Shown in pieces: positions 3,816-5,054 of a stretch of DNA of 64,000 bases. Below the pieces are notes generated by a model, which saw only the letters and a list, made by a program, of their open reading frames with translations, did no database searches and had not been told where the DNA came from. Made by a program: the position numbers and the translations under genes. Numbering within the stretch: position 1 is the stretch's first letter; each line of letters starts with the position of its first letter. The DNA is from a virus, in the IMG/VR virus record IMGVR_UViG_3300023184_000024, positions 288,755 through 352,754 of that record; one strand, 5' to 3'.

Positions 3816-4485
3816 TTACACCTGCAAGTACTGCGAAAAATCTTTTAGTAGAGAAACCAGTCTGGCAGTGCATGTGTGCGAACAAAAACGGCGCCGCCAA
3901 GAAGAAAAAGAAACAGGAGTGCAACTGGGATTACAGTCTTATCTAAGATTCTACGATCTCACACAAGGGTCGTCAAAGTTTAAAACATTTGATGATTTTG
4001 CAAAGAGTCCATACTATCGAGCATTTGTAAAATTCGGCCGGCATGTACAAGCAATACGAGCAGTTAACCCAACAAGATTCATTGACTGGGTGATCAAAGA
4101 AAATAAAAAAATTGACCACTGGTGTAAAGAAACAGTGTATGCTGAATATCTTAATCAGTACATACGTGTAGAAAATGTAGCCGACGCACTTGAGCGTGCA
4201 ATCAAGCAAGGACTAGCCTGGCACGACGAAACAGGCAATCCACCACACGACTATTTGAGATTTGCCAACCCAAATTTGGTATGCTTTGCTATTACAACAG
4301 GTCGGATCAGTCCTTGGATAGTGTATAATTGTGATTCGGGCACACAGTTTTTAAATTCAATAAATCAAGATCACATAGGAATGATCTGGTCTATCATTGA
4401 CGCAGATTTTTGGAGTAAAAAATTCAAAGACTATCCAGCTGATACTGAATACGTTCGTGAAATAATGACCAAGGCTGGCTGGTAA
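3787..4485 (+). CDS. C2H2 zinc-finger protein of unknown function
   Basis: A 232-residue protein that starts at GTG 3787, overlapping the previous gene by 29 bases. The N-terminus carries one zinc-finger-like unit, YTCKYCEKSFSRETSLAVHVC (Cys-x2-Cys, 12 residues, His-x-Cys), followed by a basic segment (KRRRQEEKE), a plausible nucleic-acid-binding module. The remaining 185 residues are globular, aromatic and mostly helical, with no domain I recognise. The last base of its stop codon is the first base of the DnaE-like ATG, so the two products are probably made together. A DNA- or RNA-binding partner in replication or transcription is plausible but unproven. Confidence 0.8.
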   Translation: MSTATPPTSDYTCKYCEKSFSRETSLAVHVCEQKRRRQEEKETGVQLGLQSYLRFYDLTQGSSKFKTFDDFAKSPYYRAFVKFGRHVQAIRAVNPTRFIDWVIKENKKIDHWCKETVYAEYLNQYIRVENVADALERAIKQGLAWHDETGNPPHDYLRFANPNLVCFAITTGRISPWIVYNCDSGTQFLNSINQDHIGMIWSIIDADFWSKKFKDYPADTEYVREIMTKAGW

Positions 4486-5054
4486 TGAGTGCAGATATCG
4501 ACATTGACATGCCGGATAGACAGGTGTTATTAAACTTGATTCGGCACACTCCTGCTCGGCAACAAGTAAACGGCACAACTAAAAAACACAACTCCGGGGT
4601 GTATGTTACAAAAATACCCTATGATCCTATTAACAACTGCGCTGCCATTGAATACCAGGAAGCAGAACAACGTGGGTATTTCAAAATTGATTTATTGAAT
4701 ATGAGTGTGTATCAGTTGATTCGCGACCCTGACCACTACGCCGATGTGTTACACAGTCCACCGCCGTGGAGTAGGTTATGGGAAGATTCTGAGTGGGCCA
4801 AGCAATTAGTACATGTGGGGAACTACTCTGAATTGCTTAAGTCAATGCGCCCAGATACCATTCCTAGAATGGCAGCGTTTATCAGTATTATCCGACCAGG
4901 CAAAGCACACTTACAAAATAAAGATTGGAAAGAAGTGTTTGATACTGTTTGGGACGGGGACTCAAGTCAGGGATTTGTGTTTAAAAAGAGTCATGCATTA
5001 AGCTATGCGCAGTTGGTTGCATTGCATATGAATTTAACTAGTCAACTTTCCTGA
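4485..5054 (+). CDS. Minimal DnaE-like (C-family polymerase) palm protein
   Basis: A 189-residue protein. In bacterial DNA polymerase III alpha the palm carries PD-[IF]-D-x-DF with two catalytic Asp, then K-[FI]-D-[FL]-L with the third, a region like LKP..F.D..AL..L.RPGP, and FNKSHA..YA. This protein has ADIDIDMPDR at residues 3-12, YFKIDLLNMS near residue 65, LLKSMRPDTIPRMAAFISIIRPG near 117-139, and FKKSHALSYAQL near 165-176, in the same order. All three aspartates appear kept. Full-length DnaE has more than 1000 residues, so the PHP, tau-binding and most finger regions are missing. It may be a polymerase remnant with a new role, a nucleotidyltransferase, or a regulator of host Pol III. Homology is my inference from motif order. 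Confidence 0.65.
   Translation: MSADIDIDMPDRQVLLNLIRHTPARQQVNGTTKKHNSGVYVTKIPYDPINNCAAIEYQEAEQRGYFKIDLLNMSVYQLIRDPDHYADVLHSPPPWSRLWEDSEWAKQLVHVGNYSELLKSMRPDTIPRMAAFISIIRPGKAHLQNKDWKEVFDTVWDGDSSQGFVFKKSHALSYAQLVALHMNLTSQLS

What the first reader, a model, noticed from the sequence alone, without database searches (positions are those of the whole stretch)
4485..5054. A 189-residue protein that seems to keep the catalytic core of DNA polymerase III alpha
The protein has, in DnaE order, ADIDIDMPDR, YFKIDLLNMS, a RPDTIPRMA...IRPG stretch and FKKSHALSYA. These correspond to the two palm Asp, the third palm Asp and the two conserved C-family segments, compressed from more than 1000 residues to 189. 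The window also encodes T4-type replication proteins, so this is not the main polymerase by its size. It may be a polymerase fragment reused as a nucleotidyltransferase, a host Pol III decoy, or a partner of the adjacent C2H2 zinc protein. I am inferring homology from motif order.
Basis: partly seen in the sequence, partly recalled or inferred. Interest (0 to 1): 0.8.

Follow-up and report, generated by a model that had tools for sequence, protein, structure and literature searches.

The report
Half of a split mini-polymerase III
This small phage protein is the metal-binding half of a pared-down copy of the bacterial replication enzyme DNA polymerase III; giant phages encode the other half in a distant gene, an arrangement predicted in print in 2021 but, as far as I could find, never tested in the laboratory.

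Summary
The ORF at 4485-5054 (189 aa) is a true, shrunken homologue of the DnaE palm/fingers. Its AlphaFold2 model (pLDDT 92) matches Pol III alpha in the 13 best PDB hits. Profile comparison to DnaE gives E=7e-7, scoring 57.7 against at most 25.7 for 20 shuffles. D4, D6, D8, K67, D69, R137, P138, K140, F166, H170 and Y174 are invariant in 77 sequences below 90% identity.

The protein lacks the part of the active site that holds the incoming nucleotide's phosphates. A second gene elsewhere in the same phage genome, outside the window, encodes exactly that: 180 aa ending in GVGRGSS...EFLR. The two chains abut in DnaE numbering (to 393; from about 400). All 18 tested genomes with the C-half have the N-half; 10 of 12 records with the N-half have the C-half. 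No ORF in the phage loci carries both. The thumb, finger tip, PHP and clamp-binding domains are absent, and the genome has an intact B-family polymerase.

The split minimal Pol III alpha of group 2.2 jumbo phages was described in 2021 (PMC7824862). This is a new member of that known, experimentally untested kind. I add residue-level tests, the fixed break point, conserved gene order, and an intron precedent.

The parts
4485..5054 (+). C-half of the split minimal Pol III alpha (189 aa): metal-binding palm strands plus trimmed fingers
   Evidence: PHROG 11778 2.4e-50; HHalign to DnaE 7e-7 with controls; AF2 pLDDT 92.4 and Foldseek Pol III alpha hits
4494..4508 (+). D4-I-D6-I-D8, equivalent of E. 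coli PD401-F-D403-V-D405
   Evidence: D4, D6, D8 invariant in 77 sequences under 90% identity; motif match to DnaE
4587..4598 (+). H35-N-S-G38, equivalent of the DnaE KHAGG motif that follows the thumb in DnaE; the thumb itself is missing here
   Evidence: H35 and G38 invariant; aligned to NAGKHAGG of DnaE
4683..4691 (+). K67-I-D69, equivalent of K553 and the third catalytic D555
   Evidence: K67 and D69 invariant; HHalign 55-140 to E. coli 541-642
4893..4904 (+). R137-P-G-K140, fingers motif equivalent of E. coli R639-P-G641
   Evidence: R137, P138, K140 invariant
4980..5009 (+). F166KKSHALSYA175, equivalent of E. coli F756NKSHSAAYA765
   Evidence: F166, H170, Y174 invariant
3787..4485 (+). 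Upstream C2HC zinc-finger protein (PHROG 11058); its TAA stop overlaps the ATG of the C-half by one base
   Evidence: Zinc ligands CxxC-x12-HxC conserved in 62 of 62; present in 155 of 160 loci with the C-half; sequence
5038..5415 (-). Convergent gene on the opposite strand (PHROG 11637, unknown), overlapping the 3' end of the C-half gene
   Evidence: Found immediately downstream on the minus strand in 130 of 145 loci
924..2432 (+). UvsW-type helicase, start of the conserved block
   Evidence: phrog_16 1.6e-74; conserved order
6946..7926 (+). DnaG-type primase, downstream in the conserved block
   Evidence: conserved C22/C48/C51, E213-G214 and D251 (alignment numbering); annotated DNA primase at the same place in Phosso, Paride and 121Q
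8626..10107 (+). DnaB-type replicative helicase, end of the conserved block
   Evidence: annotated DnaB-like helicase at the same place in Phosso and Paride; order conserved

Best explanation
The protein is the metal- and template-side half of a minimal, two-chain family C DNA polymerase. The second chain (180 aa, genome position C1:36656-37198, outside the window) supplies the first part of the palm, with the GRGS loop that in DnaE holds the triphosphate of the incoming nucleotide. The two chains dock to rebuild one palm active site, using D4/D6 and D69 for the two metal ions and K67 and the trimmed fingers for nucleotide and template. Lacking thumb, finger tip, PHP and clamp-binding parts, it would be a low-processivity enzyme acting beside the phage's own B-family polymerase, most likely in short synthesis: primer hand-off, gap filling or recombination repair. 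Shown here: homology of both halves, complementarity, invariant catalytic residues, co-occurrence. Inferred: docking, catalysis, DNA as substrate, the role.
For: C-half homology and model. N-half: 73 of 73 members match PF07733, best 7.9e-11; HHalign 7.2e-7 to E. coli up to residue 393; model pLDDT 86.6 with the 13 best PDB matches described as bacterial family C or DNA polymerase chains, though with weak E-values of 0.07-2.3. The N-half ends at EFL plus one or two residues in 118 of 122 ORFs, and the C-half starts at the DxD strand, so the two cover the palm without overlap. Both active-site halves are invariant: GxGRGS and D/D/D, K/D. Co-occurrence 18 of 18 and 10 of 12, the two failures being records of 262 and 228 kb that may be incomplete. 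The C-half sits in a UvsW-primase-DnaB block; the N-half sits near the gp44-like clamp loader. The B-family polymerase keeps SLYPS and YGDTDS.
Against: No complex could be predicted here, so docking is untested. The thumb, which grips duplex DNA in known family C enzymes, has no detected substitute. Splitting a catalytic core across unlinked genes is unusual. Co-occurrence within one phage lineage is also expected of any two core genes. No biochemical or expression data were found.
Confidence: 0.7

Rival explanations
1. The two chains form a working nucleotidyltransferase but not a template-directed DNA polymerase: for example a terminal transferase, an RNA or protein nucleotidylating enzyme, or a primer-modifying enzyme.
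For: The thumb and most of the finger tip are gone while the catalytic residues are invariant; the genome already has a complete B-family polymerase. Small members of the pol-beta fold often do such jobs (own knowledge).
Against: The fingers segments RPG and FxKSHxxxYA, which in DnaE lie near the nascent base pair and template (own knowledge), are kept and largely invariant. Both genes lie among replication genes.
Confidence: 0.15
2. The C-half works alone as a standalone nucleotidyltransferase.
For: It folds with high predicted confidence by itself and carries all the metal ligands.
Against: The GRGS part of the palm is missing from it, is present in a second, strictly conserved gene, and was found in every tested genome that has the C-half.
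Confidence: 0.05
3. A catalytically dead decoy or structural mimic that interferes with host Pol III or scaffolds the phage replisome.
For: Family C-like fragments in a phage with its own B-family replicase; small size.
Against: Catalytic Asp, Lys and GRGS are invariant across very divergent phages (down to 34% identity). The PHP and C-terminal regions, through which alpha binds epsilon, clamp and tau in bacteria (own knowledge), are absent.
Confidence: 0.07
4. The two halves are rejoined into a single chain, by trans-splicing of RNA or by a split intein, to give a continuous mini-DnaE.
For: Cyanobacterial dnaE is a known split-intein case (own knowledge). In Lactobacillus phage ATCC 8014-B2 a group I intron with a homing endonuclease interrupts dnaE at the same motif.
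Against: The N-half ends with a stop at one fixed place; neither half shows an intein-sized extension. C-halves start with unrelated leaders of varied length (e.g. KMQDSTDSKHYRKAR in 121Q). No Rfam intron match in the window at gathering score or at five N- or C-half loci at E 0.1.
Confidence: 0.03

Closest known systems
Split minimal DNA polymerase III alpha of group 2.2 jumbo phages (Iyer and colleagues 2021, PMC7824862)
   Different: Nothing essential.
PHROG 11778 and PHROG 11127 'DNA polymerase' (C-half and N-half)
   Same: Window protein 2.4e-50 to 11778; the N-half 7.9e-44 to 11127.
   Different: The PHROG labels do not say that the two are halves of one core.
Truncated Pol III alpha of phage CBB (CBB_328, PMC5259590) and gp316 of Atu_ph07 (PMC6102473)
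   Same: Earlier notices of one piece of the pair in the same phage group.
   Different: Those papers reported a single truncated or predicted alpha subunit, not a pair.
Bacterial DnaE / Pol III alpha (e.g. PDB 4iqj, 2hpi, 5lew, 2hnh)
   Same: Palm and part of the fingers; the catalytic residues.
   Different: 189 + 180 aa in two chains instead of about 1160 in one; no PHP, thumb, finger tip, HhH, OB or clamp-binding parts detected.
Intron-interrupted dnaE of Lactobacillus phage ATCC 8014-B2
   Same: Palm broken within the same few residues, between RFLSAERVTD and IDTD.
   Different: Full-size DnaE with PHP, thumb and fingers; broken by a stretch with partial group I intron matches and a homing endonuclease, presumably spliced.

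Membership tests
Split minimal Pol III alpha of jumbo phages | C-terminal piece with the Mg-binding palm Asp and a template-binding finger remnant | tested here: met
Split minimal Pol III alpha of jumbo phages | Separate N-terminal NTP-binding piece encoded far away in the same genome | tested here: met
   G000 C1:36974-37192 PF07733 match; window lies at 288755-352754
Split minimal Pol III alpha of jumbo phages | Accompanied by a B-family polymerase and no other Pol III alpha domains | tested here: met
   PolB ORF of 885 aa intact by motif; only one PF07733 match in the genome
Split minimal Pol III alpha of jumbo phages | The two pieces assemble into an active enzyme | not testable with these tools
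   No complex prediction or biochemistry available
Family C DNA polymerase (DnaE) | Palm of pol-beta-like fold with D401, D403, D555 equivalents | tested here: met
   distances between aspartates not measured
Family C DNA polymerase (DnaE) | GRGS nucleotide-binding motif in the same chain | tested here: not met
   Absent from the window protein; present in the N-half gene
Family C DNA polymerase (DnaE) | Thumb, PHP, helix-hairpin-helix and OB/clamp-binding regions | tested here: not met
   Alignment skips the E. coli thumb and about 645-750, and nothing aligns after about 778; no Pfam PHP or HHH_6 match
Family C DNA polymerase (DnaE) | Template-directed DNA synthesis | not testable with these tools
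   Needs purified proteins
Split-intein DnaE (cyanobacteria) | Intein halves at the break | tested here: not met
   N-half stops at EFL[RK]; no intein-sized extension on either half

The most novel reading that the evidence does not exclude
The pair is an active but non-replicative nucleotidyltransferase: a family C palm that lost thumb and clamp contacts and was turned to a new substrate or a non-templated reaction, kept as a core gene by giant phages of very diverse environments.
Probability: 0.15. Interest if true: 0.8.

Novelty: new member of a known kind. Interest (0 to 1): 0.45.

Why it matters
If the two chains work together, this would be a strikingly small family C polymerase core and a natural two-part one, in a lineage that already has a B-family replicase. 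It would show which parts of Pol III alpha are truly needed for catalysis. It bears on the published proposal that such minimal forms resemble ancestral polymerases; the intron found at the same place in another phage's dnaE offers a simpler alternative, gene breakage by a mobile intron. The gene is common (at least 596 IMG/VR stretches) and present in laboratory phages such as 121Q and Paride, so it can be tested directly.

Tried and rejected
Single-protein Pfam and NCBIfam scans of the window protein alone were below threshold (DNA_pol3_finger 0.22), so profile-profile and structure comparison were used. PDB sequence search was weak (0.05-1). A DnaQ-like exonuclease (PF00929), present in 121Q, Paride and Atu_ph07, was considered as an obligatory partner, but no match was found in this genome. 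Hits in bacterial and archaeal MAGs mostly carry the same phage gene block, so they are read as misbinned phage, not cellular homologues. An 810-aa DnaE ORF in one of these bins (L325) matches both halves, but it is a full-palm DnaE with finger and HhH domains. PADLOC gave nothing of weight. Intron or trans-splicing signals in the window and five loci: none. Literature searches for laboratory work on the split enzyme found none; a search for PA5oct expression data did not help.

Full report
What was checked. The window is bases 288755-352754 of a 352,754-base virus record.

Homology. The protein belongs to PHROG 11778, 'DNA polymerase' (2.4e-50). tblastn finds 90 phage records, those listed almost all jumbo phages of about 285-490 kb (121Q/Rak2-like, PA5oct/Paride, Atu_ph07, Phosso), at 35-41% identity over nearly the whole length. 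At least 596 IMG/VR stretches encode relatives. A profile of 66 relatives (A1) compared with an alignment of DnaE gives E=7.1e-7, score 57.7; the same profile against 20 column-shuffled DnaE alignments never exceeds 25.7 and against reversed DnaE gives 18.0. Seventeen of 66 members match NCBIfam TIGR00594, and the best DnaE-model match is 5.6e-6. AlphaFold2 with this alignment gives pLDDT 92.4, and the 13 best PDB matches are all bacterial Pol III alpha chains, best E=5e-4.

Residues. In 77 sequences below 90% identity, D4, D6, D8, H35, G38, K67, D69, R137, P138, K140, F166, H170 and Y174 never vary. Alignment places K67/D69 on E. coli K553/D555 and R137-P-G139 on 639-641, and F166/K168/H170/Y174 on F756/K758/H760/Y764. 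D4/D6 correspond to D401/D403 through the PDxDxD motif; the local HHalign run misplaces this first strand because of the large deletion after it, so that correspondence rests on the motif and on the HMMER match to PDB 5lew. The DnaE thumb (roughly 433-510 in E. coli, own knowledge) is reduced to a short loop and hairpin, and about 100 residues of the finger tip (about 645-750) are missing.

The other half. The same genome has one PF07733 match at C1:36974-37192, inside a 180-residue ORF ending GVGRGSSVSSYVLYLLGVHKIDSLYYDLDPQEFLR. Equivalent genes exist in Phosso, Paride, 121Q and Atu_ph07 and in at least 597 IMG/VR stretches. All 73 members of a diverse set match PF07733. HHalign to DnaE gives 7.2e-7, ending at E. 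coli residue 393. Its model (pLDDT 86.6) finds bacterial family C or DNA polymerase chains as its 13 best PDB matches, with weak E-values. GxGRGS is invariant. The chain ends at EFL plus one or two residues in 118 of 122 ORFs examined, which is where the C-half picks up, and no ORF in the phage loci carries both. Every one of 18 genomes or long contigs with the C-half has the N-half; 10 of 12 with the N-half have the C-half. The two halves thus cover the palm without overlap.

Context. The order uvsW - PHROG 11279 - PHROG 11758 - zinc protein - C-half - minus-strand PHROG 11637 - ORF5436 family - primase - DnaB is kept in nearly all contigs long enough to show it. The zinc protein's stop overlaps the start of the C-half by one base here (TAATG), and its CxxC-x12-HxC ligands are conserved in 62 of 62; in other phages other genes lie between. 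The N-half lies near the gp44-like clamp loader in 121Q and Paride. The genome's B-family polymerase is complete by motif, so the mini-enzyme is not the main replicase.

What is known. Iyer and colleagues (PMC7824862) described precisely this: in group 2.2 jumbo phages a minimal Pol III alpha split into an N-terminal NTP-binding and a C-terminal Mg- and template-binding protein, encoded far apart, beside a B-family polymerase. They proposed cooperation with the B-family enzyme in one strand or repair, and an ancestral origin. Truncated or predicted alpha subunits were noted earlier in CBB and Atu_ph07. A 2026 review of jumbo phages has no mention of DNA polymerase III, and I found no laboratory test.

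Mechanism. I think the two chains dock to make one palm: GRGS from the N-half for the triphosphate; D4/D6 and D69 for the metals; the finger remnant for the nascent base pair. Without a thumb and clamp contacts it should be a short-synthesis enzyme. Homology, complementarity, conservation and co-occurrence are shown; docking, catalysis and role are inferred. A decoy is unlikely because the catalytic residues are invariant and the interaction domains are the ones lost.

Origin, a new lead. In Lactobacillus phage ATCC 8014-B2 a full-size dnaE is interrupted between RFLSAERVTD and IDTDSEG by a stretch with two partial group I intron matches (1.4e-4 and 2.4e-3, below Rfam's gathering score) and a NUMOD3 endonuclease ORF; the relative ATCCB is uninterrupted there. 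This is the same short interval at which the jumbo-phage protein is split, so breakage by a mobile intron is a plausible origin. It is an analogy, not a demonstrated history.

Noticed in passing
L330:4032-4997 (Lactobacillus phage ATCC 8014-B2, JX486088): dnaE is interrupted at its DxD motif by a stretch with partial group I intron matches and a NUMOD3 homing endonuclease ORF, annotated as two separate Pol III alpha genes; at the same place as the jumbo-phage split.
   Followed up: partly
window 5038-5415 (-): A small gene (PHROG 11637, unknown) is kept on the opposite strand, convergent with the C-half gene, in 130 of 145 loci although nearly all neighbours point the other way; WWWESNR is nearly invariant.
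   Followed up: partly
window 3787-4485: Zinc-finger protein of 232 aa with invariant CxxC-x12-HxC ligands (C2HC) and several invariant Trp/Phe in an uncharacterised domain of about 200 aa; PHROG 11058, unknown function.
   Followed up: partly
W02 C1:88906-92683 (Paride, OR805295): B-family polymerase matches are spread over two open frames of 825 and 379 aa about 2.5 kb apart, so the replicase gene looks interrupted or split there.
   Followed up: no
window 145-966: Radical SAM protein (PF04055, 4.5e-8) directly upstream of uvsW; relatives occur at varied places around the same block in other phages.
   Followed up: no
G000 whole record: No DnaQ-like exonuclease (PF00929) was found here, although 121Q, Paride and Atu_ph07 have one.
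   Followed up: no
L305-L318: Contigs binned into bacterial and archaeal MAGs (Natrialbaceae, Elusimicrobia, Pelagibacter and others) carry the jumbo-phage replication block: probable misbinned phage contigs in GTDB genomes.
   Followed up: partly
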